Shown in pieces: positions 7,025 through 48,759 of a stretch of 64,000 bases of DNA. The notes beneath the pieces were generated by a model. That model made no database searches. It had not been told where the DNA came from and saw only the letters and a program-made list of their open reading frames with translations. The number at the start of each line of letters is the position of its first letter. The first letter of the stretch is position 1. The position numbers were made by a program, and so were the translations under genes. The stretch is taken from NCBI RefSeq assembly GCF_016859125.1, contig NZ_CP069338.1, positions 10,047,501-10,111,500 on the forward strand, read 5' to 3'. The DNA is from Archangium violaceum (GTDB lineage: Bacteria > Myxococcota > Myxococcia > Myxococcales > Myxococcaceae).

Positions 7025-7027
7025 TCA

Positions 7028-12884: not shown

Positions 12885-12912
12885 GGGATCTCAGCCTCAG
12901 AGCGGGGCAAGC

Positions 12913-27798: not shown

Positions 27799-27885
27799 GA
27801 TTTTGCCTCTCGTGCTGTTTGACTGTGACTGTCTTTCTCGCACGGCCCCCGTAGTGACATGCAAGACGGGGGGAGATGACACTAG

Positions 27886-28939: not shown

Positions 28940-29082
28940 GCCGCACGACCTTTCACTCGTGACCTAATATTTTCGGACCTTTGTCTGGCTGAACGTCGCG
29001 GTCTGCGCACCCTCACGTTCCCCTCCCTCCCGGAAGGACCCACACGCGCGGGGGGGGGGGGATGTAGGACACTGACCAGCCC

Positions 29083-29328
29083 TCACAGGTCGCTCTCGAG
29101 CAGCTCACCAGCGAGCCGATCGATGCGAGTGGCCGTTCTGGCGATGAGGGCTCCAATCCGGTCAGGAGGCACGCACCCAGTGGCACGCGCCTGGCACAGC
29201 TGCAGCAGGAGCCCCACATCTGCCGTGAATTCCGCCTGTACAGCCTTCCGGCTCCGCGTGCGACGAGTAGCGGTTACTGCGGTATCTGCGGTTGATTTCG
29301 GCCCGTTGTTTTTTGATGACACCTTCAT
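29083..29328 (-). CDS. Small basic hypothetical protein
   Basis: An 81-residue protein from the ATG at 29328, with GGAGAAAGGG before it. A basic start (MKVSSKNNGPKSTADTAVTATRRTRSRK) is followed by a helical part (FTADVGLLLQLCQARATGCVPPDRIGALIARTATRIDRLAGELL). The family is unknown. Its first codons overlap one arm of the iteron-like repeats. Confidence 0.5.
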   Translation of the reverse strand: MKVSSKNNGPKSTADTAVTATRRTRSRKAVQAEFTADVGLLLQLCQARATGCVPPDRIGALIARTATRIDRLAGELLESDL

Positions 29329-29420
29329 TTGACCCTTTCTCCGAGAATGACCCTCTTTAGAAAAACTTTGATCGCTACAGTCTGCGTTCAGAATCAACCG
29401 CACTAACCGCATCAACCGCA
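29269..29420. other. Iteron-like inverted repeats around an AT-rich core, candidate replication origin
   Basis: TGCGGTTGAT occurs at 29287-29296 and, reversed as ATCAACCGCA, at 29393-29402 and 29411-29420, with related TGCGGT or AACCGCA copies between and beside them (29278, 29405). The roughly 90 bases between the clusters are far richer in A and T than the surroundings (TTGTTTTTTGATGACACC, TTTAGAAAAACTTTGATC). Repeats flanking an AT-rich core directly downstream of a primase-helicase gene resemble origins of P4-like satellites. Part of the repeats is coding, so codon bias could also contribute. Confidence 0.4.
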
Positions 29421-31852: not shown

Positions 31853-31916
31853 TCGTTGACCGGGAATCGCGAGTGCAAGAGGGCGCTGCTCCATCGGGGT
31901 CGGCGCCCTTCGTTAT

Positions 31917-32168
31917 TCAGAGCTCGATGTCTGCGATCGAGCCGCCAGCGCGCCGCTGCCGCTTCGGAACGCTCGGGGCTCCGGAAGCAGCCGGCACCTC
32001 TCCGCGGCGCGCAAGCTCCTCGAGCTGCTCGCGGGGGATGTACTGCCGCCCCAGGATGGTGACCGGTCGCAGGAGGCCCCGGCGGCTCAGCTCGAGGAGT
32101 GCCTTGTTCCGTCCCAGGCCGATCGTCCGGGCGGCTTCTCTGAATCTGCAGAGAAGCGGGCCACTCAT
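31917..32168 (-). CDS. Excisionase-like helix-turn-helix protein
   Basis: An 83-residue protein: CRFREAARTIGLGRNKALLELSRRGLLRPVTILGRQYIPREQLEELARRG is a winged helix-turn-helix of the MerR/Xis type, and the C-terminus is basic (PKRQRRAGG). Its ATG overlaps the stop of the preceding HTH gene by four bases. It is likely to control excision or the promoter of the replication genes. Confidence 0.7.
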   Translation of the reverse strand: MSGPLLCRFREAARTIGLGRNKALLELSRRGLLRPVTILGRQYIPREQLEELARRGEVPAASGAPSVPKRQRRAGGSIADIEL

Positions 32169-32356
32169 GACTGGCCCTCACAGGCCTTCAGATAGCGTTC
32201 GAGTTCCTCGCGGGAGACGAAGGACCGGCGACCATCCTTCGTAAGCCTGATCAGCCCCTTCTGGACACGATCGTAGAAGGTCGAGCGGCTGTACCCGAAA
32301 ACACGACAGGCTGCGGGAACCGAGTAGCGGGCTGGTTCGGGGAGTTGGTCTTTCAT
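32165..32356 (-). CDS. AlpA/excisionase-like DNA-binding protein
   Basis: From the ATG at 32356 (an earlier one at 32368 is possible) it has about 63 residues: YSVPAACRVFGYSRSTFYDRVQKGLIRLTKDGRRSFVSREELERYL, a compact winged helix-turn-helix of the AlpA/MerR class. AlpA-like genes next to an integrase and primase are the core of P4-like satellites and many integrative elements. It is co-transcribed with the next HTH gene. Confidence 0.7.
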   Translation of the reverse strand: MKDQLPEPARYSVPAACRVFGYSRSTFYDRVQKGLIRLTKDGRRSFVSREELERYLKACEGQS

Positions 32357-32449
32357 GGGCGTCTCCAAGCGTTGACACCCACTGTTGTACAGCTCGCCAC
32401 GATGACGGTCAGGTGGCGCAAATCCACGCGTCGCGCTGAATTACGCCAC

Positions 32450-33001
32450 CTAGCGGCGAGTGAGAGCAGAGATCACCGCCAGGTGCACGTCTTCAACGGG
32501 TGCCCCAAGGAACCGGAGCAGCATTTCGATGGTGCGCTCGAAGTGCCCGTCCCGCGTCTTCTTCCGGTGCTCGGCGGGGTAGGCGTTCCAGACGACCGTG
32601 ATCAGCTCGTCACGCCACGCCTGTTTACGCGGGCGACCGCGGCGCCTAGCCGGTTGCTGCTTGGCCCAGAACGTGGCGCTCTTGTGGAGATCCGCCAGCA
32701 TGGCGTCGAACTTCCCCCACCCGAAGGTCTCCACTCCATCGTCATCTTCCCCCATAAATGGGCGTGCCTTGTCGAGCGCGGCTTGTAGTGCCTTCGCGGC
32801 GCGCGCCACCCTGGCCATGTCGCGCCGCTCATCGTCCAACGGCACCTCGATCAGACCCACCAACGGCAACTGTTCCTCGATGACAACCATCAGCCGGCGG
32901 ATCTCCGCGAGTTGCAGCCCGTCGCTCAAGTGGTCCATCAGCGCCTTGCGCTGATGCGGCCCCAGCCCTCTCGCCTTCGGCCGCTTCGGTTCGCGCCTCA
33001 C
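32450..33001 (-). CDS. Hypothetical protein downstream of the integrase
   Basis: The GTG start overlaps the integrase stop (GTGA), so the two are co-translated; 183 residues. A basic start (RREPKRPKARGLGPHQRKALMDHL) is followed by a helical middle, then a basic RRRGRPRKQAWRDEL motif that resembles an AT-hook, and a C-terminal FERTIEMLLRFLGAPVEDVHLAVISALTRR. I do not recognise the family. DNA binding is plausible from the RGRPRK core. Confidence 0.55.
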   Translation of the reverse strand: MRREPKRPKARGLGPHQRKALMDHLSDGLQLAEIRRLMVVIEEQLPLVGLIEVPLDDERRDMARVARAAKALQAALDKARPFMGEDDDGVETFGWGKFDAMLADLHKSATFWAKQQPARRRGRPRKQAWRDELITVVWNAYPAEHRKKTRDGHFERTIEMLLRFLGAPVEDVHLAVISALTRR

Positions 33002-34251
33002 AGTGCACCCCGCTCAGCACGCACGAGCTGTTCACACCACCAGTTCGCGAGCTTGATTCGCCCCTCGAGCCGCTCGCCGCGGTCGTAGGCGCGAACGACG
33101 TCGTTGTCGTGGATGTGGTCGAGAGCGATCTCCACCACATCGCGCTCGAAACCTCCGTCCCGGGCGAGCGTGGAAAACGCCGCGCGCCAGCCGTGGGGCG
33201 AGTGCTTGTCCTTGAGGCCCAGCGTCACCCGGTACGCCTTTTCGATGGACTCATGCGTGATGTGCTGCCCTTCCCCCGACACAGAAGGAAACACGTACCC
33301 CATGGAACCGCTCAGCGAGCGCCAGGTGCGGAGCTCGGCCGCGATGGCGGGCCCGAGGATGATCTTGTGATCGTGGTGCCGGTCCTGCGCTTTCATCTTC
33401 GCCCGCGGGATGACCCACAGGGGGACTTCGGCGTCCAGGTCGAACTCGGACCACTCCGCCCGGATGACGTTCCCTATTCGCGCCGCAGTGAACGCGCAGA
33501 GACGATGCGCCATCCGTACTGCAGGCGAGAGCCGCACCACGTTAGCCCGGCGCAAAACGTCTCCGAGCTGGGACCACTCAAGGAACGCAGGCCGCCTCCC
33601 GGCCTGCTTCTTCCGGGGAAGCACCTCGCGCACCGGCACCGCAGGGTTCTCGCGACATAGGCCCCGTGCCTGAGCTAGCCGGAAGATGCTCTCGACGCTC
33701 CAGAGCACCTTGCCCGCAGTGTCGATGGCCTCGCGCGGCGGCTTGACGATCTCCTCAACCACCTTCGCGACCATGGCCGGGGTGATGTCGGCCACGGGGA
33801 GAGACCCCAAGAGGGGGAGCACGTCCCGTTCAATGGCCCGGCTCGTCGTGTCGAAGTGGATCTGGCTCCAGCCTTGGCGCTTCCTCTCAAGCCAGTCCTG
33901 AGCAACGGTCGCGAAGGTGTTGCCCGAAGACGCGACGGCCGCTGCTCGGCTCAGCTTGCGAGCCTGCACCGGGTCACTACCCATCCGCAGGCGGTCCTTC
34001 ACGGCCGCGCGCTCTGCCCGTGCGGCCTTGAGCCCGATCTCTGGGTACGAGCCGATCGCGAAGAGGCGCTCGTTACCCCCATACCTGTACTTCACTCGCC
34101 ATACAGGCGTGCCGGCCGGGGTACGCATCAGGAACAGCCCACCGCCATCGGAGAGCTTCTTCGTTGCTGCGTTCGAGCCGGCCTTGATCCAGGCCTTGAT
34201 CTCCAGGTCGGTGAGCCTGTCCGTCCCTCGGGCCGCGATACCCCCAGCCAT
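32998..34251 (-). CDS. Tyrosine recombinase/integrase with N-terminal DUF4102 arm-binding domain
   Basis: The ATG at 34251 has GGAG nine bases upstream; 417 residues. The N-terminus LTDLEIKAWIKAG..KKLSDGGGLFLMRTPAGTPVWRVKYRYGG..FAIGSYPEIGLKAARAE is the DUF4102 arm-type domain of P4-like integrases. A SAM-like core domain follows. The catalytic part shows LCAFTAARIGNVIRAEW (Arg I), HGWRAAF (His-x-x-Arg) and IHDNDVVRAYDRGERLEGR (Tyr). Such enzymes usually insert into tRNA or tmRNA 3' ends, and a T-arm/acceptor sequence lies 176 bases upstream, as expected for the attachment junction. Confidence 0.92.
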   Translation of the reverse strand: MAGGIAARGTDRLTDLEIKAWIKAGSNAATKKLSDGGGLFLMRTPAGTPVWRVKYRYGGNERLFAIGSYPEIGLKAARAERAAVKDRLRMGSDPVQARKLSRAAAVASSGNTFATVAQDWLERKRQGWSQIHFDTTSRAIERDVLPLLGSLPVADITPAMVAKVVEEIVKPPREAIDTAGKVLWSVESIFRLAQARGLCRENPAVPVREVLPRKKQAGRRPAFLEWSQLGDVLRRANVVRLSPAVRMAHRLCAFTAARIGNVIRAEWSEFDLDAEVPLWVIPRAKMKAQDRHHDHKIILGPAIAAELRTWRSLSGSMGYVFPSVSGEGQHITHESIEKAYRVTLGLKDKHSPHGWRAAFSTLARDGGFERDVVEIALDHIHDNDVVRAYDRGERLEGRIKLANWWCEQLVRAERGAL

Positions 34252-34367
34252 GCATGCATCTCCAGTTCGATTTCGATTGAGTACCCCAATCGTACCCCCA
34301 CCGTAACCGGATGCAGCCGGACAGGACAAGATGCCCCCGGACGCCTAAACCCCTGAAATAAAAAGAA

Positions 34368-34391: not shown

Positions 34392-34426
34392 GTATACTGC
34401 GGGACGCCCGTGGACGTCCTTCATGT

Positions 34427-34455
34427 GGAGGCGGCGGGAATCGAACCCGCGTCCG
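34427..34455 (-). repeat. Attachment-like direct repeat B next to the integrase
   Basis: Twenty-nine bases identical to repeat C (48709) and matching repeat A (7581) over 22 bases, all in the same orientation. On the minus strand it is a tRNA T-arm plus acceptor 3' half. It is placed where the attL/attR of the DUF4102-type integrase would be expected. No 5' half of a tRNA or tmRNA is found within the next 370 bases. Confidence 0.7.
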
Positions 34456-35198
<743 letters not shown>

Positions 35199-35203: not shown

Positions 35204-37555
35204 ATGACGAAGAGGACACTTGAAGCCCTGAGGGGCTGGTTCGACGGCAAGGACGGGCTACGGGAGTTCCTCGCCGAGCACGCGCCAGACCGGGTCGAGC
35301 TGCTCGACGCCGGCCTCAAGCGAATCGAAACCCTCGAAGCGCTGCGCAAGGATCCGCTCCCGGTCTGTTTCCTCGGGGGCGCCGGCGTGGGCAAGAGCAC
35401 GCTCCTCAACGCGGTCGTGGGCGGAACCCGCTCTCTCCTCCCCGCTGGCGGCGTGGGACCCCTCACCGCGCTCGCCACGCGGGTTGCCTTCGCCGAGAAG
35501 CCGTTCTTCGAGGCCCGCTATCACGGAAAGGACAAGGTCAACCAGGTGCTCTTCGCCCTGGAACGGGCCTTCACCTCGGACGGGGCCGCGGCCACCAAGG
35601 ACAACGGAGAGGGCGACCCCGCGTCCGCAGGCGCCGGTACCGAGAAGCGTAACGCCTACACCCAGCTCGCCGCGCTCCTCATCCGGGGCGATCAATTCAA
35701 GAATCAGGACGTGTCCTACCTGATGGACGGACTTCGCCGGGTGTTGGGCGCGGAGCCGCGCTGGAACGCCACCCTCGAGCCCGAGGACCTCCGGCGCATC
35801 GAGCGCCTTGCCGAGGTTCTCGCCAGTCCGGATCGGACCCGTCGGATCGAGCTCACTCCGGGTGCCGAGGCCGCGTTCTACCGGGAGCTCCACGAGCATG
35901 CCGCCGGTGCGCTGGCCCCGGTGATCCGGGAGCTGGAGGTCGGCTACAACAGCCCGATCCTCAAGAGTGGCCTCATCCTCGTCGATCTGCCCGGCGTCGG
36001 AGTGGCGAACGACGAGTACCAGGAGGTCACGGCCGAGTGGATCCGCAAGGCCCGGGCGGTCGTGCTGGTGGTGGATCGCGCTGGTTTCACCAAGGCCAGT
36101 GCGGACCTGCTCAAGGAGACCACGTTCCTCAACAGCCTCCTCCACGACTCGCCTGACGAGCCGGATTCCGCGCGGCTCGTCGTGGTGGCGACCAAGCTCG
36201 ACCAGCCCGCTGCGGAGGAGCGGCAGCGGCTCAAGGATCTGGATCCCGGCAGCGCCCAGCCCTTCCTGCACTACTTCGAGGATGTCTGCCGCCGCGCCGT
36301 CGAGGTCATGCGCAACCAGGTGGAGACCCAGCTGGTCTCCTTCGTGGAGGACGGCGCATTGGCCACGCGCGATGCCCGCGACGAGGTGGTGAAGCGGGTG
36401 GTGGCCGGGCTCTCCGTATACCCCCTCTCGGCCACCGAGTACCGTGCCCTCCTCCTCGAGGACGACGACGTCCCGAGGCGGCTGAAGCGAATCGAGGAGT
36501 CCGGCATTCCCGCCTTCCAGGAGAGCCTCCGCGCGATGGCGGCCTCCCGCTTCGACAAGTTCGAGGCCCGGATCTCCACCCAGGAGGGGCTGTGGCTCTC
36601 CCAGGCGCGCACCGCTGTGGAGATGGTCGTCGCGAAGTGGGAGGAGGACAACCGGGCCGAGGAGGAGGCGCAACGCCTCAAGCAGGAGCTTGAGGAGTTC
36701 TCCAGCAGCCTTCGAACCGAGCTCGCCAACCGGGAGGGGGCCTTTCGCAACTTTCTCAGCGAGACCATGCCCTCGATGATCGAGGCCGAGCTCGAGCGTG
36801 CTGCCCAGGAGGCCGAGAAGGCGATCCGCGCGCGGCTGCGCAAGTACAGGAACTTCAACTATAGGACCCTGCAGGCGGCGATCAAACGGGGCGGGACCTT
36901 CCACGGTGCGAAGAAGGTCGAAATCCCCGTGGAGATCACCCTCGAGTTCGAGGAGCCCCTGGCGGTGGTGTGGTCGAAGAAGCTGCTCGTCGAGCTCCGT
37001 CGGCGGACAAAGGAGATGGGCGAGAATCACGTCCAGCTCGTGGAGCCCATCGTGGGATGGGCTCGGAACCAGGGCGCCCGGGTGAAGCCGCGGATGGTGG
37101 AAGCCCTCCACGAAGACCTCAAGACGGGCACGGCCGCTCTTGGTCAGGTGGGGAAGGAGGCCATCGACGAGCTCAAGGAGGCCGTCAAGCTCGAGCTCTA
37201 CAAGCAGGTGGAGAAGGCGGTTCGCAGCCGCTGCCAGGCCTTCGTCAAGAGCGGCGAAGCCGAAGGTGCCGGCGTGCTCAGCCGGATGATCGAATTCCTG
37301 GACGACAATCTCGGACCGTCGGTGGTGGAGGCCGCGAAGCCCAAGGCCAAGGAGGTCCTCCTGCACAACTACGAGAAGGTGCGTGACGACATCCGCGCCG
37401 TGTTCCGCCAGCGCGCCAATCCCATCCAGCTGGCAGTGGGCGCACTCGTCGACTCGCACGAGGAGCACGTGCGCCGCAGCGACGCCCAGCGGCGTAAGGT
37501 CGTCCTCGCCCGCGGCCACAAGATCCTCGACGCCTGCCCGAAAGGTTCCGCATGA
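35204..37555 (+). CDS. Dynamin-like large GTPase
   Basis: The ATG at 35204 has GAGGGGG before it; a TTG-like earlier start at 35174 is less likely. 783 residues. GTPase motifs: G1 LGGAGVGKSTLLN (about residues 57-69), G3 LVDLPGVG, G4 VVATKLDQP. The roughly 300-residue G domain is followed by a long, mostly charged helical region (SQARTAVEMVVAKWEEDNRAEEEAQRLKQELEEF) as in dynamin-like proteins. There is no signal peptide and no clear membrane segment. The stop overlaps the next ATG (ATGA), so it is translationally coupled to a SNF2-type helicase. Dynamin-like proteins in bacteria remodel membranes, and some act in phage defence. Confidence 0.85.
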   Translation: MTKRTLEALRGWFDGKDGLREFLAEHAPDRVELLDAGLKRIETLEALRKDPLPVCFLGGAGVGKSTLLNAVVGGTRSLLPAGGVGPLTALATRVAFAEKPFFEARYHGKDKVNQVLFALERAFTSDGAAATKDNGEGDPASAGAGTEKRNAYTQLAALLIRGDQFKNQDVSYLMDGLRRVLGAEPRWNATLEPEDLRRIERLAEVLASPDRTRRIELTPGAEAAFYRELHEHAAGALAPVIRELEVGYNSPILKSGLILVDLPGVGVANDEYQEVTAEWIRKARAVVLVVDRAGFTKASADLLKETTFLNSLLHDSPDEPDSARLVVVATKLDQPAAEERQRLKDLDPGSAQPFLHYFEDVCRRAVEVMRNQVETQLVSFVEDGALATRDARDEVVKRVVAGLSVYPLSATEYRALLLEDDDVPRRLKRIEESGIPAFQESLRAMAASRFDKFEARISTQEGLWLSQARTAVEMVVAKWEEDNRAEEEAQRLKQELEEFSSSLRTELANREGAFRNFLSETMPSMIEAELERAAQEAEKAIRARLRKYRNFNYRTLQAAIKRGGTFHGAKKVEIPVEITLEFEEPLAVVWSKKLLVELRRRTKEMGENHVQLVEPIVGWARNQGARVKPRMVEALHEDLKTGTAALGQVGKEAIDELKEAVKLELYKQVEKAVRSRCQAFVKSGEAEGAGVLSRMIEFLDDNLGPSVVEAAKPKAKEVLLHNYEKVRDDIRAVFRQRANPIQLAVGALVDSHEEHVRRSDAQRRKVVLARGHKILDACPKGSA

Positions 37556-40293
37556 CCCGGCTCTATCGGCATGACGGAGTGCCGATGGCGCTGTTGCGCG
37601 AGGTCGACGACTTCGGAATCAGCGCCCTCGATCTCGCCCGGGCACCCGGGCGTTTCTGGGGGGACGAGGGGACGAAGCTCCCGCTCCTCACCTCCAGCGT
37701 CGATGCGCGCCGGGTCACCGCCCTCCCCACCCCGGCCGAGCTGCTCGCACTCCCGCCCGACAAGGGGGACAACTGGCTTTCCCGGAGCCGCAGGTCAGTG
37801 TCGGCGGCCTTCGCTTGGTTCCTCCTCGCTGAGGATCCCCAACGACGGCTCGATGTCCGCCCCGTGGTGACCCTGGCCCATCAAGCCAGCCTGGTGAGAC
37901 ACGTGCTCGACCAAGCGAACCTGCGGCGCGTCCTGATCGCCGACGAGGTCGGCCTCGGCAAGACGATCGAAGCGGCCCTTATCATCGGCGAGCTGCTTGA
38001 GCAGCAGCCGACGCTCCGGATCCTCTACCTGGCACCCGCTCGACTCGTCGGCAACGTGATGCGCGAGTTCCGGCGGCTCGCGCTTCCCTTCCGCGCTTGG
38101 GTGGCGGGAGAAGACGGTGACGCGCGCCTGGTCGGCAAGGACGGGGATGCCTGCGTGGTGGCGAGCATCCACCGGGCCGTCCACCCCAGCCACATGGACA
38201 AGGTGTCGCGCACCCGGTGGGACGTGATCATCGTCGACGAGGCTCACCACCTCTCGGACTGGGCGGAAGGCGGCGGCAGCCCCGTCCGCAAGTACAAGCT
38301 GGTGCAGGAGCTCGTGAGCCAGCTCAGCCCCGAAGGCAGGCTCTTCCTCCTCACTGGCACGCCGCACCAGGGGCACGCGGCCCGCTTCGCGAACATCCTC
38401 CAGCTCCTCAAGAGCCCTGGCGAGTCCATAGATGCCGTGCGCGGCCGGGTCATCTACCGCACCAAGGAAGACGTCCGGGACTGGGACGAGCGACCGCTCT
38501 TTCCGCTCCGCCGCGTTCGGGAACCCGTCGCGGTGGACCTCGGAGGGGCCCACCGGCGCTGGCTCGAGAACATCCATGACTTCTTCGAGCCAGAGCGCAA
38601 CGACCGGCCGGAAGATGCCAGACAGCGGGCCGCGACGTGGCGCTGCGGGCTCGCCCTGCAGTGGGCCACCTCCAGTATCCAGGCGGGCCTCGGGTTCCTG
38701 GTGCGCCAAGCCCTCCGCAGCGGCGCGACCCAGAAGATGCGGGGGCTCCGGCGAGCCCTGGAGCTGCTCCGTCCCTATCGGGATGGAGAGCCCGACGAGC
38801 CCATCTCGCGCCTGTTCGAACGGATGAAGCGCGATCTCGTTCGTCAAGAGCAGACGTGTTCGCTGGAGGATCTCGAAGCACTCGACCCCGAGCACCCCGC
38901 CGTGGTGCACCTCGACCAGCTCTCGAGCCTCCTCGAAGAAGGCTGCGCCCTTCTCGAACAGAATCCCGACAAGAAGTGGGAAATCCTCTTCGAGCAGGTC
39001 CTCCATGATCTCAGTGAAGAGAAGGTGGTCCTCTTCGCCCAGCCCATCGAGACCGTCACGGCGCTGTGCGGCTACATCGAGCGGAAGACGGGCCAGCGTC
39101 CGGCGAAGATCATCGGCGCGCAGAGCGAGCACCTGCGTACCGAGCAGATCGAATCCTTCTGGCGCCCCGATGGGCCGCAGTTCCTGGTGTCATCCCGGGC
39201 CGGCGGCGAGGGCCTCAACCTGCAGGTGGCCAGGCGCCTCGTCCACGTGGACGTGCCCTGGAACCCGATGGAGATGGAGCAGCGGGTCGGTCGCGTCCAT
39301 CGATTCAAGTCCAGGCGCACCATCCTCGTGGATACGCTCGTGGTGAAGGACAGCCGCGAGGTAGATACCTACCGGGTGGCGCGAGAGAAGCTGCGCAGCA
39401 TCGCCCGCACGGTCGTGGCCCCCGAGCGCTTCGAGGAACTCTATTCCCGGGTAATGGCGCTCGTCCCTCCGGAGGAACTCCAGGACCTGATGGGAGAGCG
39501 TCCCCTGGGTCCTCTCGACCGGAACGAAACCGATCGGCTCAACGCGCTCGTCACCGAGGGTTTCGAGCAATGGCGCAGGTTTCATGACCAGTACGCGGGG
39601 AACCAGCGCAACGTCAGAGCGCTCGATCCCGGTCAGGCCCGCTGGAGTGATCTCGAATCGCTGCTCACCCAAGAGTTGCAGGCCTGCCCACTGCCCGACT
39701 TCGAGGTCCTTCGCTTCCGCACGAGCGAGGAAGAGGTCGTCGAAGCCTCCGAAGCCGCGAGGGTCTTCGAGATAGCCGGCCGCCCCCGCGCTTGCGGCGA
39801 CTATTCCGGCATGCCCGTCACTGGGAGGAGCGGGGCTTCAGCCGAGCCCATCGGCATCAACAGCCCGGAGTTCTCCGCCATGCTCCGGCGCCTCGCCTTC
39901 CCCGAGCGCCCGAGCGGTGCCGCCGTCCTGCGCTGGCCCACGGGCCGACCGCTCCCCGCCAGAACCGGCGCCTTCGGGCTCGTGGTCCTGGTCAGACAGT
40001 CGCTCCGGCAGCAGCAAGGCGCGTGGGTCGAGCACCGGCTCGAGCTGGAGGGGAGCCTCATCCACCCCGATGGTGCCCATCAACTCCCGACGGCCGAGCT
40101 GGCGGAACTCCTGCGGCAACTGCGCGGCACCGTCGCGGTCAAGGACCCCACCGTCGATGCCGGACTGGCTGGCGCCATCAAGGGTGTCGAGTCGCAGCGT
40201 TCACGCGAACTCCGGCAGCCGAGTGACACCGACCTCCATAACGGAATCCGCCACGTTGTCTGGCCCATCCTCGCTGCAGTGCTCGTGGCCTAA
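37552..40293 (+). CDS. SNF2-type helicase-like ATPase
   Basis: 913 residues. Motifs: I ADEVGLGKTIEAALI (about 131-145), II VDEAHHLSDWAEG (about 229), III TGTPHQGHA, V/VI VSSRAGGEGLNLQVARRLVHVD and EQRVGRVHRFKS. This is the SWI2/SNF2 order with an insert between the lobes, similar to defence helicases such as those of DISARM. The C-terminal 250 residues are not recognised. It is coupled to the dynamin-like GTPase by a four-base overlap. After the TAA at 40291 the same frame stays open for 25 codons (KAALGEISDAMRDVFGEHREH), so the stop may be a recent nonsense change or an error. Confidence 0.88.
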   Translation: MTRLYRHDGVPMALLREVDDFGISALDLARAPGRFWGDEGTKLPLLTSSVDARRVTALPTPAELLALPPDKGDNWLSRSRRSVSAAFAWFLLAEDPQRRLDVRPVVTLAHQASLVRHVLDQANLRRVLIADEVGLGKTIEAALIIGELLEQQPTLRILYLAPARLVGNVMREFRRLALPFRAWVAGEDGDARLVGKDGDACVVASIHRAVHPSHMDKVSRTRWDVIIVDEAHHLSDWAEGGGSPVRKYKLVQELVSQLSPEGRLFLLTGTPHQGHAARFANILQLLKSPGESIDAVRGRVIYRTKEDVRDWDERPLFPLRRVREPVAVDLGGAHRRWLENIHDFFEPERNDRPEDARQRAATWRCGLALQWATSSIQAGLGFLVRQALRSGATQKMRGLRRALELLRPYRDGEPDEPISRLFERMKRDLVRQEQTCSLEDLEALDPEHPAVVHLDQLSSLLEEGCALLEQNPDKKWEILFEQVLHDLSEEKVVLFAQPIETVTALCGYIERKTGQRPAKIIGAQSEHLRTEQIESFWRPDGPQFLVSSRAGGEGLNLQVARRLVHVDVPWNPMEMEQRVGRVHRFKSRRTILVDTLVVKDSREVDTYRVAREKLRSIARTVVAPERFEELYSRVMALVPPEELQDLMGERPLGPLDRNETDRLNALVTEGFEQWRRFHDQYAGNQRNVRALDPGQARWSDLESLLTQELQACPLPDFEVLRFRTSEEEVVEASEAARVFEIAGRPRACGDYSGMPVTGRSGASAEPIGINSPEFSAMLRRLAFPERPSGAAVLRWPTGRPLPARTGAFGLVVLVRQSLRQQQGAWVEHRLELEGSLIHPDGAHQLPTAELAELLRQLRGTVAVKDPTVDAGLAGAIKGVESQRSRELRQPSDTDLHNGIRHVVWPILAAVLVA

Positions 40294-40437
40294 CCAAAAG
40301 CGGCGCTGGGCGAAATCTCGGACGCCATGCGCGACGTCTTCGGCGAGCACCGCGAGCACGTGGTGCGCTGAGGAAACATCCCCCCCGCCCCCTCTCCCGG
40401 GAGTGGGCGGGGCATCCCGGCTCCCCCAAGCAGGAGA

Positions 40438-40702
40438 CGAGGGGGCGAGCGTGGCGCCTGAGACAGCGGCCAGGAAGGAGCCGATGAAGGAGAGGACATC
40501 GGGAGTGGACTGGGCGGCGGTGCTCAGGAGGACGTTCGACTTCGACGTGTTCGTCTGCGTGAGGAGTGGAGGCAGGCGGAGTGTGTTGGCGTATGTGAAG
40601 GAAGGGGGAGGGGGGCGCGCGATTTTGGAGCACCTGGGCCTGCCCACGGCAGGTGCGAGCCTGGCCCCGGCGCGAGGGCCACATAAGGCCGCGTGGTGTT
40701 GA
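40438..40702 (+). pseudogene. C-terminal fragment of an IS91-family transposase
   Basis: The frame SGVDWAAVLRRTFDFDVFVCVRSGGRRSVLAYV and GGRAILEHLGLPTAGASLAPARGP is the C-terminal end of IS91-type transposases, which usually read VDWA.LLRR.F..DVF.CPRCGGR. The second Cys is a Ser here. With the N-terminal fragment at 34738 it brackets the GTPase/helicase operon; the catalytic middle, including the Tyr motif, is missing. Confidence 0.75.
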
Positions 40703-40996
40703 GGCTCAAGCCGCCCCAGTCAAGAGAGCCCCTGCCCCTGCCGCACACCTCGTGGGAGGGCGGCCAGGGCCGGCGTGTACCCCAAAGGGGCTGCGCGGCT
40801 TGTGCACCGCCCTGGAGCACTGCGCACTTCTCGGGCGACCCCCGTCAGCGGCCCTCCTCAGCCCCTCCGCTCCAGTCCGCCACCTCTCAATAGGCCTTCA
40901 ATCCTTCCTATGCTCCAGGCGCAGCACCCGGTGGCGCCCACCTTCAGACCGGACATGGTGCGCCCTTTCAGAGCGCAGTAGGATTTGGAGCCGCGC
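40703..40996. other. 294 bp between IS91 remnant and the STAND gene
   Basis: No gene is supported. It should contain the promoter of the NACHT-WD40-SIR2 gene; no clear promoter elements are seen. Confidence 0.4.
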
Positions 40997-43900
40997 ATGG
41001 TCGGCGAAATCATCGACTTCGACTCGGAGGTGCAGCGGCACGAGGATCTCCTTGGCCGAGAGGACATCCTGTCGAAGTTGAACGAGCTTCTGCTGGGGGA
41101 TGGGGCACGGGGCTGGGTGCTGGTGAAGGGAGGGCCAGGCCTGGGCAAGAGCGCGCTGCTGGTGGAGTGGAGGAAGCGCAACGCGGGGCGCGCGGGCCTG
41201 GGTATGGCGGAGCACTTCCTGCGGCGCGGGGAGGAGCAATGGGAGCGGCCGGAGGTGGTAAGGCGCAACCTGGCGGCGCAGGTGGAGAGGCTTTACCCCT
41301 CGGAGGCCGACCCGGAGGCTCGGCCCGAGTCTCGCCTGCGCGAGCTACTCCAACGTGTTTCCCGGCAGGTGCTGGAGCCAAGTGGGGAGCGGCTGGTGCT
41401 GGTCGTGGACGGGCTCGACGAGGCCGAGGTCGGCCCGGACGGCTCAAATCCTCTGCCACGCTTTCTCCCGGACTTCCTGCCTCCGGGCGTGCTGGTGCTG
41501 TGTGCATCGAGGCCCACGTATCCGTACCTGAGCTGGCTGGAGGGGCTCGCGCAGGCTCGCACGCTCGACCTGGATGGAGAGGTCTGGCAAGGCTCGAATG
41601 CGTCGGTGGTCCGCAAGTGCTGGATGCGAGCGGCGCGGGGCGACACGGCGCTATGCTCACAGGCCTTTCTCGATGGGCTGGTGAAGCGCTCGGAGGGGAA
41701 CGCACTGTACACGGTGAAGCTGGCGGCGCGGTTGACAGGCCCTGACGCCGCGCAGTGGCGAGCCCGGTTGCTTGAACGTGGGCCGGAGGTGCTACCGCAG
41801 GGTCTGGAGAAGCTGCTGGATGAGATGTGGGCGCGGCTGTTGCGGTTGCCCCAGGAGTTGCGACGAGTCGTGATGGATGGGCTGTGGATTGTCGCGGCGG
41901 CGCGCGAGGCCTTGCCGCTGTCTGTGATCGCCAGGGTGGCGGGCTGGAGTCAGTATGGGGATGAGCTTCAATTCCTGCGGGAGGCACGCCCCTATTTGCT
42001 GGAGAAGCCCATTTCAGGTGGGGGCGAGGTGGCGTGGCGGCCTCACCATGACTCTTTGCGAAGCTACGTGTTGAGAATGCTGGGGCGGGAGAGGGAAAAG
42101 GAGCTGCACCAGCGGCTGGCGGAGCATTTGTGCAGGTGGCCTGGGGACGAGGGGGATGATGACTGGCGGCGAAGCTATGCGTTGAGGCATGGGGTAACAC
42201 ATTGGCTGAACGCTGGCCGGTGGCAGACGGCTCGGAAGCTTTACACCAATGTGGACTACCTGACCGCGCAGTGCCAAGTGGCAGGAGTGCTCGTGCTGGA
42301 GGAGGATCTGGGCCAAGCCGCAGAGCGGGTTCCTCAAGCGGAGAGAGACATTCCACGAGACCTGCGGCGAGCCATTCAGGCGGAATCCCACGTCTTGAGG
42401 AAGGATCCCACGGTGCTGGCGAGGAGCCTTCATAATCGGCTCTTGTGTATGGGTTGGAGTGCGGAGGAGGTTGCGGGGGTGCTGTGCTTTCCAACGGGAC
42501 TTCCCGCACTGCGATTGAGAAGACCGATAAGGACAGACGGCAGCACTCGCACACTCCAGGGCCACAGCGGGCGGGTAACCGGGTGCGCAGTGACGCCGGA
42601 TGGGCGCCGCGTAGTGTCCTCCGCAGACGACAACACGCTCAAGGTATGGGAGCTGGAGACGGGAAGAGAACTGGCCACGCTCCAGGGCCATAGCGGGCCG
42701 GTAACCGGGTGCGCAGTGACACCGGACGGGCGCCGCGTGGTGTCCTCCTCAGACGACAACACGCTCAAGGTATGGGAGCTGGAGACGGGAAGGGAACTGG
42801 CCACGCTCCAGGGCCACAGCGGACGGGTGACCCAGTGCGTAGTGACGCCGGACGGGCGCTGCGTGGTGTCCTCTTCCGGAGACAACACACTCAAGGTATG
42901 GGAGCTGGAAACGAGGCAGGAATTGGTCACGCTCCGGGGTCACCACTCGTATGTGACCGGGTGCGCGGTGACGCCGGACGGGCGCCGCATGGTGTCCTCC
43001 TCTTGGGACAACACGCTCAAAGTATGGGAGCTGGAGACGGCACGGGAGCTGGCAACGCTTGCGGGCCACCCCTGGAATGTGACCGGGTGCGTAGTGACGC
43101 AAGATGGACGACGCGTGGTGTCTTCTTGCGAGGACAACACGCTCAAGGTGTGGGAGCTGGAGACGGGGCGGGAACTGGCCACGCTCCAGGGCCATCTCTG
43201 GAGTGTGACCGGGTGCGCGGTAACGCCGGACGGACACTGCGTGGTGTCCTCCTCCTGGGACAACACGCTCAAGGTGTGGGAGCTGGAAACGGGGCGGGAG
43301 CTAGCCACACTCGAGGGCCACAGCGGGCGGGTGACTGGGTGCGCAGTGACGCCGGACGGGCGCCGCATGGTGTCTTCCTCCTGGGACAACACGCTCAAGG
43401 TGTGGGAGCTGGAGACGGGGCGGACACTGGTCACGCCCCAAAGTCATGGGGGGAGTGTGACTGGGTGCGTAGTGACGCCGGACGGGCGCCGCATGGTGTC
43501 CTCTTCTGACGACAACACGCTCAAGGTGTGGGAGCTGGAGACGGGGCGGGAGTTGGCCACGCTTGAGGGCCACAGCAGGCGGGTGACCGGATGCGCGGTA
43601 ACGCCGGACGGGCGCCGCGTGGTGTCCTCCTCTGACGACAACACGCTCAAGGTGTGGGAGCTGGAAACGGGGCGGGAGTTAGCCACGCTTCGGGGCCATC
43701 CGTGGACCGTGACCGGGTGCGCAGTGACTCTGGACGGGCGCCATGTAGTGTCCTCCTCTGGAGATGACACGCTCAAGGTGTGGGAGCTGGAAACAGGGCG
43801 GGAGTTGACCACGCTCCACGGCGACCGCTCATTTGGGTCCAGGTTAGTGGTGACGCCGGACGGGCGCCGCGTAGTGTCCTCCTCTGAGGGTAACACGCTC

Positions 43901-45217
43901 AAGGTGTGGGAGTTGGAGACCAAGCGGCATCTGGCCACGCTCAAGGGCCACCGCTTGTATGTGAATGGATATGCGGTGACGCCGGACGGCCGCCTTGTTG
44001 TGTCATCCTCGTCGGACAGGACGCTTAGGGTGTGGGAGCTAGAAACTGGGCGGGAAGTGGCCACACTCCAGGGTCACCCATGGACCGTGGCCGGATGCGC
44101 GATGACATTGGACGGCCTCTTGGTGGTGTCTTACTCCGACGACAACACGCTCAAGGTATGGGACCTGAGCTCCGGTGAGTGCCTACACACGCTCTATGGG
44201 TATGGCGGTTTTTCCGCGATCGTCGTCACATCGACGCTCATCTGTGCAGGTGATGCGCTCGGGAACATTTGGTTCATGGAGCCTAAGCTCGGTGCACCCA
44301 TGACAAAACAAGACAACAAGCCCATTTCTCCGCCAGGAGCCCCCTTGAGCCTCTCGTTTCCCAAGCCGCTCGTCAGCGCCTGTCAATCCAAGAAGCTTGC
44401 TCTGTTCATCGGGTCCGGTCTCTCAATGGGAAAGGATGTCAAAGGCAAATTCCCATCATGGACCCAGCTCCCTCAGCGTCTGCTCGACGCCTGTGAAAAA
44501 CTCGGGAAGCTCTCCGGCCCAAGGCTCAAACTGAAGCGTGAGATGTTCGAGGAAAGCATGTCGCTCAAGGAGATGCTCGCGGAACTGGGCACGCTCCGAA
44601 CAATCCTGGGTCAGCAGTACCAACAGGTGCTCAACGAAATCTTTCGCCCCCATGACGAATCAGAGCCCGGCGAGGCGCACAAAGCCGTGGCCAAGCTAGG
44701 GGTCCAGACCATCTTGACCACCAACTATGACCAGCTCATCGAGTCTCTCCCGGAGAAGCCTCGCCGACAGCCCTATACCTGGCTGGACGCGCCCAAGGCC
44801 CTCGGGGAGCTGGATGGGAGCCGCAGGTTCCTCCTCAAGGTGCACGGCTCAGCAGAGCATCACGAGTCCATTGTCATGACGGAGGGCGAGTACATGCGGG
44901 CGCACTCCAACGACTCGTACCAGAAAGTGCTAGGTCTTCTGCTCCAGACGCACGCCTTTCTGTTCATTGGCTATGGGATGAATGATCCGTTGGACCTCGA
45001 TCTGGCGCTGGAAGGAAACGCGGCCGCCTTCAAGACCGCGGCCCGGATGCACTACGCCCTCATAAAGAAGTCCGACGACCCGGTGAGAGACCAGCGAGAG
45101 TGGGAGCGCTACCTGAACGACTACAACGTCCAAGTGCTCCCCTATGACGACCATGCACTGCTTCCCCAGATTCTCGACGGACTCAGCCATGCCGCCACGA
45201 CGGGAACGGGCAACTGA
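40997..45217 (+). CDS. NACHT-type STAND ATPase with 13-14 WD40 repeats and a C-terminal SIR2 domain
   Basis: The ATG at 40997 follows GGAG six bases upstream; 1406 residues. Residues 20-330 are a NACHT/AAA-type ATPase: LLGREDILSKL, Walker A KGGPGLGKSALL (about 45), Walker B LVLVVDGLDEAE (about 135), then a winged-helix region. Residues 516-1094 hold thirteen 42-residue WD40 repeats plus one degenerate, enough for two seven-bladed propellers. Residues 1120-1395 are a SIR2-like domain with LALFIGSGLSM, ILTTNYDQLIES, LKVHGSAE (catalytic His) and FLFIGYGMNDP. The expected role is that of an NLR-like sensor: WD40 binds a ligand, NACHT oligomerises, SIR2 consumes NAD+. Having the effector at the C-terminus is unusual. 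Confidence 0.92.
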   Translation: MVGEIIDFDSEVQRHEDLLGREDILSKLNELLLGDGARGWVLVKGGPGLGKSALLVEWRKRNAGRAGLGMAEHFLRRGEEQWERPEVVRRNLAAQVERLYPSEADPEARPESRLRELLQRVSRQVLEPSGERLVLVVDGLDEAEVGPDGSNPLPRFLPDFLPPGVLVLCASRPTYPYLSWLEGLAQARTLDLDGEVWQGSNASVVRKCWMRAARGDTALCSQAFLDGLVKRSEGNALYTVKLAARLTGPDAAQWRARLLERGPEVLPQGLEKLLDEMWARLLRLPQELRRVVMDGLWIVAAAREALPLSVIARVAGWSQYGDELQFLREARPYLLEKPISGGGEVAWRPHHDSLRSYVLRMLGREREKELHQRLAEHLCRWPGDEGDDDWRRSYALRHGVTHWLNAGRWQTARKLYTNVDYLTAQCQVAGVLVLEEDLGQAAERVPQAERDIPRDLRRAIQAESHVLRKDPTVLARSLHNRLLCMGWSAEEVAGVLCFPTGLPALRLRRPIRTDGSTRTLQGHSGRVTGCAVTPDGRRVVSSADDNTLKVWELETGRELATLQGHSGPVTGCAVTPDGRRVVSSSDDNTLKVWELETGRELATLQGHSGRVTQCVVTPDGRCVVSSSGDNTLKVWELETRQELVTLRGHHSYVTGCAVTPDGRRMVSSSWDNTLKVWELETARELATLAGHPWNVTGCVVTQDGRRVVSSCEDNTLKVWELETGRELATLQGHLWSVTGCAVTPDGHCVVSSSWDNTLKVWELETGRELATLEGHSGRVTGCAVTPDGRRMVSSSWDNTLKVWELETGRTLVTPQSHGGSVTGCVVTPDGRRMVSSSDDNTLKVWELETGRELATLEGHSRRVTGCAVTPDGRRVVSSSDDNTLKVWELETGRELATLRGHPWTVTGCAVTLDGRHVVSSSGDDTLKVWELETGRELTTLHGDRSFGSRLVVTPDGRRVVSSSEGNTLKVWELETKRHLATLKGHRLYVNGYAVTPDGRLVVSSSSDRTLRVWELETGREVATLQGHPWTVAGCAMTLDGLLVVSYSDDNTLKVWDLSSGECLHTLYGYGGFSAIVVTSTLICAGDALGNIWFMEPKLGAPMTKQDNKPISPPGAPLSLSFPKPLVSACQSKKLALFIGSGLSMGKDVKGKFPSWTQLPQRLLDACEKLGKLSGPRLKLKREMFEESMSLKEMLAELGTLRTILGQQYQQVLNEIFRPHDESEPGEAHKAVAKLGVQTILTTNYDQLIESLPEKPRRQPYTWLDAPKALGELDGSRRFLLKVHGSAEHHESIVMTEGEYMRAHSNDSYQKVLGLLLQTHAFLFIGYGMNDPLDLDLALEGNAAAFKTAARMHYALIKKSDDPVRDQREWERYLNDYNVQVLPYDDHALLPQILDGLSHAATTGTGN
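42548..44186 (+). repeat. Thirteen tandem 126-bp WD40-coding repeats
   Basis: Each unit encodes 42 residues of the form GHSGRVTGCAVTPDGRRVVSSSDDNTLKVWELETGRELATLQ. The framework is nearly invariant at both protein and DNA level, while a few positions vary between units: the two residues after GH (SG, HS, PW, LW, SR), and the residues before the conserved D/N-NTLKVWE (SAD, SSD, SSW, SCE, SSG). Homogenised frameworks with variable ligand-facing positions indicate exchange between repeats and selection. Confidence 0.9.
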
Positions 45218-45337: not shown

Positions 45338-45536
45338 TGTCGATGATCACCGAGAAGCGCGGGAATTTGGACGAGCCGAGCGTGGCGGCCTGAAACTGGC
45401 GGGCAGAGGTAGGAGGAGGTAGCGCAGAGAGCCGGGACGAGGGCGCCAAAAAGAAGAGGGCCCGGAGCTGGTACCTCCGGACCCTCAGGCCGAATCACGG
45501 GGACGCGATGCGGGAGGAGCACGCTCGCACGAGGCC

Positions 45537-46127
45537 GTGAGGCGGTCCAGTTTCCAGGCGTCTCGAGCCTGGGGACGCGTGGATTCACTGCGGATGGCGC
45601 AGTGCGCGCTCGGCACCTGCCGGGCACTCTTCTACCTGTGCCGTCGGCACGACCGGGGCCAGCGCTACTGCTCGCGTGAGTGTAGTGCGCAGGCGCGGCG
45701 CCAGAGCCAGAGGGAGTCGGGGCGACGCTACGCTCGCGGCTTCGCGGGCCGGTGGGCCGCGGCCAGGCGCCAGGCCCGGAGCCGTGAGCGGCGAGCACGG
45801 AAAGTCACGCATCAGGGTAGCCCGCCACTGGAGGGCGCGGGCACCTTGGCGCCGCCGACGCCAGAGGTCGCCCTGGAGGCCACCACTTTTCGCGTCGGCC
45901 AGGAGCCGACTGATGCGGACAGACGGGAAGAGAAGGACACCGGGCGAGTGCCCGGTGCCGAGGCGGACGAGGGACGGGCTGGCGAGGGCGCTGTGGCGAG
46001 CGTGCGAGCCCCTGCCAGTGCCGGGAGCGGTGCACGCTGCGCGGTGTGCGGATGCCGTGCGGACTTCGTCCGTCATGGGCCCTGGGAGCCACGCCCCGGG
46101 CCCCGGGCCAGGAGGGCGCCATGGTGA
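45537..46127 (+). CDS. IS21-associated accessory protein with Cys clusters
   Basis: A 196-residue protein from a GTG at 45537: VDSLRMAQCALGTCRALFYLCRRHDRGQRYCSRECSAQARRQSQRESGRRY has a C-x4-C...C...C-x3-C zinc-binding pattern followed by a basic helix, and the C-terminus has a second pair (CAVCGCRADFVRHGPW). Homologous ORFs are often found upstream of istA in myxobacterial IS21 elements. It overlaps the istA start by seven bases. Its role in transposition is unknown. Confidence 0.7.
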   Translation: MRRSSFQASRAWGRVDSLRMAQCALGTCRALFYLCRRHDRGQRYCSRECSAQARRQSQRESGRRYARGFAGRWAAARRQARSRERRARKVTHQGSPPLEGAGTLAPPTPEVALEATTFRVGQEPTDADRREEKDTGRVPGAEADEGRAGEGAVASVRAPASAGSGARCAVCGCRADFVRHGPWEPRPGPRARRAPW

Positions 46128-48372: not shown

Positions 48373-48524
48373 CGCCCTGGGGGACTACATCCCCCAGTCC
48401 CCCTGTGGCTCCGCTCCGGCCCGCCCCCAACTGCGGTGCGGGCCTCCTCGGAGCGCGAGCCCCGCCGCTCCTCGCCCCCAAACCGGCTGGTTCATTTTCC
48501 CGCGCTTCTTCATGTTCAGCGACA

Positions 48525-48708: not shown

Positions 48709-48737
48709 GGAGGCGGCGGGAATCGAACCCGCGTCCG
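48709..48737 (-). repeat. Attachment-like direct repeat C between mutS and its terminator
   Basis: Identical over 29 bases to repeat B (34427). Only about 50 bases separate it from the mutS stop, so there is no room for the 5' half of a tRNA: it is a bare T-arm/acceptor 3' half. It is followed on the plus strand by a run of ten C. It marks the likely right boundary of the inserted islands. Confidence 0.7.
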
Positions 48738-48759
48738 CCCCCCCCCCATCCGCCCTTCC

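What the first reader, a model, noticed from the sequence alone, without database searches (positions are those of the whole stretch)
35204..40293. Two-gene operon of a dynamin-like GTPase and a SNF2-type helicase
Seen: the two large genes overlap by four bases (ATGA), so the products are coupled in synthesis. GTPase motifs (GGAGVGKST, DLPGVG, TKLD) and SNF2 motifs (DEVGLGKT, DEAHHL, SRAGGEGLN) are intact. Known: dynamin-like proteins occur in defence systems (for example LeoA types), and SNF2 helicases in DISARM and Zorya, but I know no system formed by just these two. The surroundings are mobile and defence-like. Inference: a candidate unreported anti-phage module joining DNA sensing to membrane action.
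Basis: partly seen in the sequence, partly recalled or inferred. Interest (0 to 1): 0.78.

Follow-up and report, generated by a model that had tools for sequence, protein, structure and literature searches.

The report
Dynamin GTPase paired with SNF2 translocase
A membrane-type motor protein (dynamin) and a DNA-tracking motor (SNF2) are inherited together as a two-gene unit in scattered bacteria, often near anti-phage genes, which makes them a good candidate for an undescribed way of fighting phages.

Summary
A 783-aa dynamin-like GTPase (35204-37555) and a 913-aa RapA-like SNF2 protein (37552-40293) overlap by ATGA, with intact motifs and the expected folds. The pairing is not unique. In 18 of 18 testable homologous loci (Myxococcota, Planctomycetota, one genome from a Pseudomonadota sample) the same SNF2 subfamily follows the dynamin on the same strand, at -8 to +30 bp; 11 of 18 have the exact 4-bp overlap. 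Conversely, a profile of this SNF2 subfamily found 11 strong members in 538 genomes, all 11 beside the dynamin (10 of the 11 had gone into the profile). The pair is rare, not found in five congeners, and sometimes decayed; 6 of 10 scanned loci carry known defence genes (restriction-modification, DISARM, PD-Lambda-1 and others), and two further loci a CBASS operon and a CRISPR-like array. No NCBIfam model of a named system reaches its cut-off, and ten text searches found no description. Most likely it is a two-component anti-phage/anti-MGE system: the SNF2 protein engages foreign DNA and the dynamin is the GTP-driven effector. Membrane action is unproven: no hydrophobic membrane segment was seen in the eight dynamins examined. 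Function is untested.

The parts
35204..37555 (+). dynamin-like GTPase, 783 aa (G domain plus long helical stalk)
   Evidence: Pfam Dynamin_N E 7.7e-11; AlphaFold model pLDDT 84.7, pTM 0.59, best PDB matches SynDLP, BDLP, IniA, Campylobacter DLP pair, mitofusins
37552..40293 (+). RapA-like SNF2 translocase, 913 aa
   Evidence: Pfam SNF2-rel_dom and Helicase_C; model pLDDT 80.4, pTM 0.69; among the 50 VIA-align rows shown, only the two RapA entries align up to residue 913; RapA is also first by Foldseek
37552..37555 (+). ATGA stop/start overlap
   Evidence: exact 4-bp overlap in 11 of 18 pairs
34427..34455 (.). 29-bp direct repeat resembling a tmRNA 3' end, left copy (possible attachment site, but it lies inside a dispersed repeat)
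   Evidence: a copy of the dispersed repeat in L062 carries it with 2 mismatches
48709..48737 (.). same 29-bp repeat, right copy; similarity to congeners resumes at about 48753-48759
34419..34968 (+). piece of a dispersed repeat left of the pair; its part from 34738 reads like a transposase N-terminus (by recall)
   Evidence: copies at about 82-92% identity in the genus; no Pfam match for 34738-34977
40403..40917 (+). piece of a dispersed repeat right of the pair (transposase C-terminus-like by recall)
   Evidence: copies at about 71-92% identity in the genus; no Pfam match for 40403-40699
40985..45217 (+). neighbouring ATPase + WD40 + SIR2 protein, 1410 aa; not part of the conserved pair
   Evidence: not shared by the pair's other loci as far as seen

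Best explanation
A two-gene anti-phage or anti-mobile-element system. The RapA-like SNF2 ATPase binds and tracks along duplex DNA (or transcription complexes on it) and acts as sensor/licensing motor. The co-translated dynamin-like GTPase is the effector: once engaged it oligomerises in a GTP-dependent way and blocks the invader or stops the infected cell, either at the membrane (as proposed for DynA- and Leo-type dynamins) or on the invader's nucleoprotein. Shown here: the conserved pair, intact catalytic motifs, folds, sporadic distribution, mobile setting in the window and defence-type neighbours at many loci. Inferred: the division of labour, DNA as trigger, GTP-driven assembly, and the target. 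My split between targets is roughly 55:45, membrane over nucleoprotein.
For: 18 of 18 testable loci keep gene order and strand with -8 to +30 bp between genes. A profile of the SNF2 subfamily gave 11 strong matches (608-1493 bits) in 343 + 195 genomes, exactly the genomes with the dynamin; nothing scored between 608 and 268 bits, and the hits from 268 down cover mainly the helicase part. Pairwise identities of the two proteins correlate over eight pairs (rho 0.84; 48 of 5040 sampled permutations as high). In the comparison of the first 12 loci I saw no third gene common to them (output cut in the middle), so recognition and effect should lie in the pair or in the host. Rare and patchy: 4 of 195, 7 of 343, 1 of 398 and 14 of 397 genomes, the last including seven partial or distant relatives. 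PADLOC at E<=1e-40 finds defence families at 6 of 10 loci against 1 of 22 control regions (generic kinase, RtcR and dGTPase hits not counted; Fisher p 0.0014). CBASS genes in G1131 and a CRISPR-like array in G1010 lie at two more. Distant dynamins sit beside HmaA-like SNF2 genes in DUF499 (BREX-related-like) loci of G1211 and G987.
Against: No functional data. In the reverse test 10 of the 11 strong SNF2 matches were themselves in the profile (only G262 was not), so the informative part is the lack of unpaired members, and only a few candidates per genome were scored. The enrichment weakens if every PADLOC hit in the controls counts (6/10 vs 3/22, p 0.013; by gene at least 9/77 vs about 12/232, p 0.065); the G116 DrmD is about 12 kb away; one control region is itself an Hma-type island; and locus sizes were not matched. 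I recognised no defence gene at G455, G326, G676 (scanned, but only 25 of 63 matched families were shown) or at G961, G1088, G984, G1251 (not PADLOC-scanned). The pair was not found in plasmid or phage records or viral contigs. The possible attachment-site repeat in the window lies inside a dispersed repeat. No Pfam nuclease domain was found in either protein and no transmembrane segment in eight dynamins, so the blocking step is unidentified.
Confidence: 0.6

Rival explanations
1. Nucleoprotein-directed (Mx-like) mechanism: the SNF2 translocase loads the dynamin onto invading DNA or replication/transcription complexes, where the dynamin cages or condenses them; the membrane is not involved.
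For: No transmembrane or strongly hydrophobic stalk segment in 8 full-length dynamins: the four highest 19-residue windows of the window protein all lie in the G domain. A conserved motif (562-577) lies between two long stalk helices, where a membrane paddle might be expected. The constant partner is a DNA motor. The dynamin of G353 starts with a Cys-rich ribbon-like segment, and G1054 shows a similar start.
Against: The overall fold is that of bacterial membrane dynamins; peripheral membrane binding needs no hydrophobic paddle. Nothing shows contact with DNA or with the partner.
Confidence: 0.25
2. Cargo gene pair for stress or genome maintenance of a mobile element (for example RNA polymerase recycling as in RapA, or membrane repair), not immunity.
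For: The SNF2 protein shares whole-length architecture with RapA, an RNA-polymerase recycling factor; in the window the pair lies in a mobile-looking segment; at several loci no defence gene was recognised.
Against: RapA NCBIfam score 140 against a cut-off of 576. Defence-type neighbours at several loci. Sporadic distribution and decay.
Confidence: 0.12
3. Incidental co-transcription: two unrelated genes that happen to hitch-hike together.
For: None beyond the general commonness of short overlaps in bacteria.
Against: 18 of 18 conserved adjacency down to about 23-26% dynamin identity and across at least two phyla; no unpaired strong member of the SNF2 subfamily seen.
Confidence: 0.03

Closest known systems
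Dynamins/Eleos (LeoA-LeoBC type) defence systems
   Same: Bacterial dynamin-like GTPase as a core component, in islands; PADLOC LeoBC matches weakly (28.3 bits) and the LeoA structure 4aur is found by fold (E 1.2e-5).
   Different: Those are made of dynamins (LeoA, B and C called dynamins in the title and abstract start of PMC4159319, listing; Dynamins and Eleos grouped together in PMC11811056, passages). Bacterial dynamin genes are mostly paired with each other (abstract start of PMC6104087). Here the partner is an SNF2 translocase and I saw no second dynamin.
B. subtilis DynA anti-phage dynamin (PMC8844932, abstract and outline read)
   Same: Dynamin superfamily protein giving population-level phage protection.
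   Different: DynA is reported to delay lysis; no SNF2 partner is mentioned in the abstract, and NCBIfam DynA scores 19 bits against a cut-off of 1600.
SNF2 helicases of DISARM (DrmD), Dpd (DpdE), Hma (HmaA), BREX (BrxHI/HII) and BREX-related (BR) systems
   Same: RapA-like SNF2 core and defence setting; best scores of 128-164 bits.
   Different: Far below curated cut-offs where given (DpdE 164 vs 500, DrmD 160 vs 610). The methylase, ATPase and other companion genes of those systems were not seen as constant neighbours of this pair.
E. coli RapA
   Same: Closest PDB entry by sequence (E 1.8e-24) and by Foldseek (E 3.0e-26); VIA-align Z 22.4, rmsd 8.0, 651 residues aligned (8spg) and Z 20.3, rmsd 7.7, 662 aligned (8t0l).
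   Different: 140 bits against a 576-bit family cut-off; 16-19% identical over the fold alignments; whole-chain TM-score only about 0.4; paired with a dynamin.

Membership tests
Dynamin superfamily | Dynamin_N GTPase domain above Pfam gathering score, with G1/G3/G4 motifs | tested here: met
   42.7 bits vs 27; motifs
Dynamin superfamily | G domain plus extended helical stalk as in bacterial dynamin-like proteins | tested here: met
   model pLDDT 84.7; SynDLP 9em9 Z 22.9, rmsd 5.8, 387 aligned; IniA Z 20.3, rmsd 5.2, 317 aligned; BDLP Z 18.9 but rmsd 52 over 548; whole-chain TM-scores only 0.25-0.36 for these
Dynamin superfamily | GTP-dependent oligomerisation and membrane binding | not testable with these tools
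   needs protein; no hydrophobic paddle found
SNF2 family | SNF2-rel and Helicase_C domains above Pfam gathering score with motifs I, II, V/VI | tested here: met
   51.1 vs 24.9 and 65.5 vs 23.5; motifs conserved in the 11-sequence alignment
RapA (PRK04914) | NCBIfam equivalog cut-off 576 bits | tested here: not met
   140 bits
DISARM (DrmD) | DrmD above NCBIfam cut-off, with drmA/B/C and a methylase | tested here: not met
   160 vs 610 bits; no constant third gene seen. A separate DrmD (1026 bits) lies about 12 kb from the pair in Anaeromyxobacter oryzae
Dpd (DpdE) | NCBIfam cut-off 500 bits | tested here: not met
   164 bits
BREX / BREX-related (BR) | BrxC-like/DUF499 ATPase plus N6-methylase beside the helicase | tested here: not met
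   no such constant genes beside the pair in the loci examined (the table was cut); DUF499 was sought only in G1211 and G987, the distant-dynamin genomes, and found there
Dynamins/Eleos (LeoA-LeoBC) | adjacent dynamin genes matching LeoA and LeoBC models | tested here: not met
   only a weak partial LeoBC match, 28.3 bits; the partner gene is SNF2
anti-phage defence system | protection against phage on expression | not testable with these tools
   no experiment possible
anti-phage defence system | enrichment near known defence genes | tested here: inconclusive
   6 of 10 loci vs 1 of 22 controls, p 0.0014 on a post hoc definition; p 0.013 and 0.065 on stricter counts

The most novel reading that the evidence does not exclude
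Dynamin GTPases and SNF2/RapA-like DNA motors form a recurring immune alliance: a stand-alone two-gene system in Myxococcota, Planctomycetota and beyond, and separately a dynamin added to BREX-related (DUF499) loci. The translocase recruits a dynamin to invader nucleoprotein, a bacterial counterpart in logic to antiviral Mx proteins.
Probability: 0.3. Interest if true: 0.88.

Novelty: new variant of a known kind. Interest (0 to 1): 0.72.

Why it matters
Dynamins in bacterial immunity have been described alone or with other dynamins, and their trigger is unclear. A constant pairing with a DNA-tracking motor gives a direct hypothesis for how a dynamin could be told that foreign DNA is present, and it can be tested with two genes. 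If the dynamin acts on nucleoprotein rather than membrane, it would be a bacterial parallel to Mx proteins.

Tried and rejected
Considered and rejected: (1) unique pairing or annotation accident: rejected by 18 of 18 homologous loci. (2) Housekeeping operon: not found in five congeners and rare in each sample. (3) A disguised DISARM/Dpd/BREX/RapA/Leo member: scores far below curated cut-offs or wrong partner. (4) A third constant component: not seen in the all-against-all comparison of the first 12 loci (the printed table was cut in the middle, and the six loci were not included). Some neighbours are shared by two loci only: a HIT-domain gene by A. oryzae and B. marina, an HNH gene by G461 and G505, a restriction specificity subunit by G153 and G262. 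(5) SNF2 gene truncated in the window (an in-frame continuation follows its stop): the two 86-88% relatives have the same 913-aa length.

Led nowhere: tblastn in plasmids with two dynamins and in phages with one, viral contigs with one protein, ARAGORN for a tmRNA in the window, the repeat loci and congeners, Pfam on the two repeat pieces flanking the pair, PDB search with the DUF1156-like protein of G1211. No model of the two proteins together was made. The VIA-align lists do not exclude other folds.

Rows dropped before the '18 of 18': G196/L011 (dynamin cut by a transposase gene at about residue 127, contig ends), G1054 (contig edge), G992 (192-aa N-terminal relic, no SNF2 found on its 20-kb contig), G1273 (77-aa relic beside an unrelated SNF2), the distant dynamins of G1211, G987, G1047 and G1171, and the weak GTPase hits of G071 and G197. 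Of the 18 dynamins, 14 are full-length open frames; G455 has an in-frame stop, G505 keeps only the C-terminal part, G262 is interrupted by runs of N, G676 runs off its contig. The SNF2 frames of G326 and G1251 run off their contigs and that of G262 holds N runs. In the gap table I took the SNF2 start nearest the dynamin stop, which for G353 and G1131 is a later start than the longest frame, and non-ATG starts for G116, G961 and G1010.

Controls: the first set was 120 genes from 9 regions of six genomes (two of these regions are on the pair's own contig, in G153 and G505), the second 112 genes (at most 9 per region, the longest) from 13 regions of four genomes. Eight frames were dropped (four neighbours, four controls) for partial codons, length, stop or N. 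The alignment-mode output does not name the matching member, so the gene counts 'at least 9' and 'about 12' assume that related models hit the same protein; HmaB, RtcR and MTase_II matches of the first control were not placed.
Full report
What is there. The window lies in a 12.68-Mb single-contig genome at 10.05-10.11 Mb. The two genes are as described: ATG at 35204, a 783-aa dynamin-like GTPase, then ATGA and a 913-aa SNF2 protein to 40293. Pfam assigns Dynamin_N (42.7 bits) and SNF2-rel_dom plus Helicase_C (51.1 and 65.5 bits), all over cut-off. No NCBIfam equivalog cut-off is reached by either: the SNF2 protein scores 164 for DpdE (500), 160 for DrmD (610) and 140 for RapA (576). PADLOC, which gives no cut-offs, shows a 28-bit LeoBC match for the dynamin and at best 154 bits to SNF2 proteins of several systems. 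The dynamin gives one match in its own genome.

The pair is conserved. Close homologues (86-88%) lie in two genomes of the same family and carry the SNF2 gene with the same overlap. The family reaches A. oryzae (29% dynamin, 46% SNF2) and Blastopirellula marina DSM 3645 (40% and 45%), again with 4-bp overlap. Sampling found hits in 4 of 195 genomes of the window's phylum (own genome included; E<=1e-8), 7 of 343 in the phylum of B. marina, 1 of 398 in the phylum of Methylocucumis oryzae, and 14 of 397 in the class of B. marina (G195 again, six new full-length members, seven partial or distant ones). In all 18 loci where both sides of the junction are present, the SNF2 gene follows the dynamin on the same strand: 11 with exactly 4 bp overlap, one with 8 bp, six with 3-30 bp between. 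The loci set aside, and the choice of start codons, are listed in Tried and rejected.

From the other side. A search with an alignment of 11 of these SNF2 proteins found strong matches (608-1493 bits) in 7 of 343 and 4 of 195 genomes, exactly the dynamin carriers; the next hits fall to 268 and 266 bits and cover mainly the helicase part. Ten of those eleven matches are in the profile and score high by construction; G262 was not, and scored 608 although broken by N runs. The informative part is that no unpaired member of the subfamily appeared, within the few candidates scored per genome. Identities of the two proteins across eight pairs correlate (rho 0.84; 48 of 5040 sampled permutations at least as high). 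An all-against-all comparison of neighbouring ORFs in the first 12 loci showed no third gene common to them (table cut in the middle); a few neighbours are shared by two loci.

Structure. The dynamin model (pLDDT 84.7, pTM 0.59; 11-sequence alignment) has the GTPase domain and long stalk helices. Foldseek ranks SynDLP, BDLP, IniA and the Campylobacter dynamin pair first (E 3e-14 to 2e-11, whole-chain TM-scores about 0.25-0.36); LeoA appears at 1.2e-5. VIA-align gives SynDLP Z 22.9 (rmsd 5.8, 387 aligned), the Campylobacter pair Z 22.5 (4.8, 340), IniA Z 20.3 (5.2, 317), with mitofusins at 19-22. The eight full-length dynamins examined have no 19-residue stretch with mean hydropathy above 1.5, and the window protein's four highest all lie in the G domain. 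A short segment at 562-577 between long helices carries a conserved motif (GTFxGxRxIxLP-like in most; G564 and P575 nearly invariant); I take it for the stalk tip, an inference because coordinates could not be inspected. The SNF2 model (pLDDT 80.4, pTM 0.69) matches RapA best by Foldseek (E 3.0e-26, TM about 0.4). In the VIA-align list most rows cover only about residues 100-680, while the two RapA entries align 651-662 residues up to 913. The C-terminal order of elements (strands 790-845, helices 847-888, strand 899-912) resembles the domain that PMC12839542 (passages) describes for RapA and the BREX helicase BrxHII. Pfam finds no nuclease domain in either protein at E<=0.001.

Context in the window. 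Leftwards lie a tyrosine integrase (32998-34329), a Prim-Pol primase (29375-31894) and a phage capsid protein (26629-27882), so a satellite or prophage-like element. Between it and the pair is a tmRNA-like 3' fragment (Rfam E 1.1e-11, below gathering score). A perfect 29-bp copy of its end lies 14,282 bp to the right at 48709-48737, just before the mutS gene where similarity to the five congeners resumes; the congeners lack the repeat there, and the pair was not found in them. Against a simple attachment-site reading: the left copy lies inside a dispersed repeat, one copy of which in a congener (L062) carries the 29-mer with two mismatches, and ARAGORN finds no tmRNA in the window. The segment between the repeats holds the pair, an ATPase-WD40-SIR2 gene and an IS21 element, with pieces of dispersed repeats on both sides of the pair. 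That it is mobile or recently acquired DNA is an inference, supported by its absence from the congeners; its exact ends are not settled.

Context elsewhere. Pfam and PADLOC on neighbours show a type I restriction-modification operon in G153; DrmD (1026 bits, about 12 kb away) and a type IV-like gene in A. oryzae; a PDC-S37/Hhe-like helicase-nuclease in B. marina; PDC-S18 and HNH genes in G461; PD-Lambda-1 and a specificity subunit in G262; HNH, Vsr and an AIPR N-terminal fragment in G505. In G1131 a CBASS CD-NTase (PDB 9woo, E 2.9e-49) and an HNH-SAVED protein (7rwk, E 1.1e-105) lie from about 1.6 kb upstream. In G1010 a CRISPR-like array (58 copies at mostly 72-73-bp spacing in the 4.5 kb searched) lies about 4.5 kb upstream; cas genes were not sought. 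Counting loci with a PADLOC match at E<=1e-40, at least 6 of 10 scanned loci are positive. Of 22 control regions from six of the same genomes, one (G455 700-720 kb, an Hma-type island) holds a recognisable system; I did not count the serine/threonine-kinase, RtcR and dGTPase matches, and HmaB, RtcR and one MTase_II match were not placed. Fisher p is 0.0014; it is 0.013 if three control regions count, and 0.065 by gene (at least 9/77 vs about 12/232). These definitions were made after seeing the hits, and locus sizes were not matched. G137 and G353 had too little flank to judge.

A second association. The distant dynamins of G1211 and G987 (46% alike, 21-22% to the window) follow 1195- and 1208-aa SNF2 genes on the same strand (62% alike; closest here to the HmaA of G455, 341-343 bits). 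In G1211 the frames overlap by 4 bp, taking the first possible start, with the gene order reversed; in G987 about 0.7 kb lies between. Downstream lie a gene resembling a DUF1156 methylase (by recall of its N-terminal sequence; no PDB match) and a DUF499 ATPase (Pfam PF04465 over cut-off in both). This resembles the gene set that PMC12839542 (passages) describes as BREX-related systems; that paper's text holds no 'dynamin' and no 'GTPase'. So the link between dynamins and defence-type SNF2 motors may be wider than this family.

Decay. The dynamin has an in-frame stop in G455 and is reduced to its C-terminal part in G505, while their SNF2 genes are full-length; relics occur in G992 and G1273, and a transposase gene cuts it in a Myxococcales MAG. 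Repeated loss of the dynamin would fit a costly effector, but the numbers are small.

Mechanism. Since only the pair is constant and the SNF2 protein has no recognised nuclease, the simplest model is a DNA-engaging motor that licenses a GTPase effector. Whether the effector acts on the membrane (as for DynA, PMC8844932 abstract) or on nucleoprotein (as Mx proteins do in eukaryotes; recalled) is open.

Literature. Ten searches of the paper library listed no paper whose title or abstract start describes a dynamin-SNF2 system; the library lacks most subscription journals and holds no separate preprint server. Seen: passages of PMC11811056, PMC12839542, PMC7159879, PMC12595487 and PMC12629846; abstract and outline of PMC8844932; listing and abstract start only of PMC4159319 and PMC6104087. 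The composition of known defence systems beyond these is recalled.

Noticed in passing
L114 (G1211) 2406-8341 and L115 (G987) 8031-14762: Distant dynamins placed after HmaA-like SNF2 genes in loci with a DUF499 ATPase and a DUF1156-like methylase; the paper defining BREX-related systems does not contain the words dynamin or GTPase.
   Followed up: partly
window 34427-34455 and 48709-48737: Perfect 29-bp direct repeat resembling a tmRNA 3' end bounding a 14.3-kb segment that carries the pair; congeners lack it next to mutS, but the left copy lies inside a dispersed repeat.
   Followed up: partly
window 26629-34329 (-): Integrase, Prim-Pol primase and phage capsid gene: a satellite or prophage-like element ending near the tmRNA-like fragment.
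   Followed up: partly
window 40985-45217 (+): 1410-aa protein with an N-terminal P-loop ATPase region, many similar 126-bp (42-aa) WD40 repeats and a C-terminal SIR2 domain resembling ThsA/Dsr effectors.
   Followed up: partly
L026 443-3070 (G353), L112 1-1502 (G1054), L117 6754-10230 (G1047): Three dynamins of the family or its distant kin begin with a Cys-rich ribbon-like segment.
   Followed up: no
L116 (G1273) 5634-9062 (-): A 77-aa N-terminal relic of the dynamin (66% identical to Blastopirellula) directly upstream of a different 1027-aa SNF2 gene, possibly a partner swap.
   Followed up: no
L117 (G1047) 6754-13684: A 1158-aa dynamin followed by an ATPase-like gene and a DEAD-box/YprA-like helicase gene, perhaps another dynamin-helicase locus.
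   Followed up: partly
L068 (G455:C1 700001-720000): A control region turned out to be an Hma-type defence island with a Cas6-like gene.
   Followed up: partly
window 46046-48372 (+): IS21-type istA/istB; near-identical DNA (window 45338-48524) occurs elsewhere in the same genome.
   Followed up: no
window 34419-34968 and 40403-40917: The pair is flanked by pieces of dispersed, degenerate repeats found many times in the genus (IS91-like transposase ends by recall; no Pfam match).
   Followed up: partly
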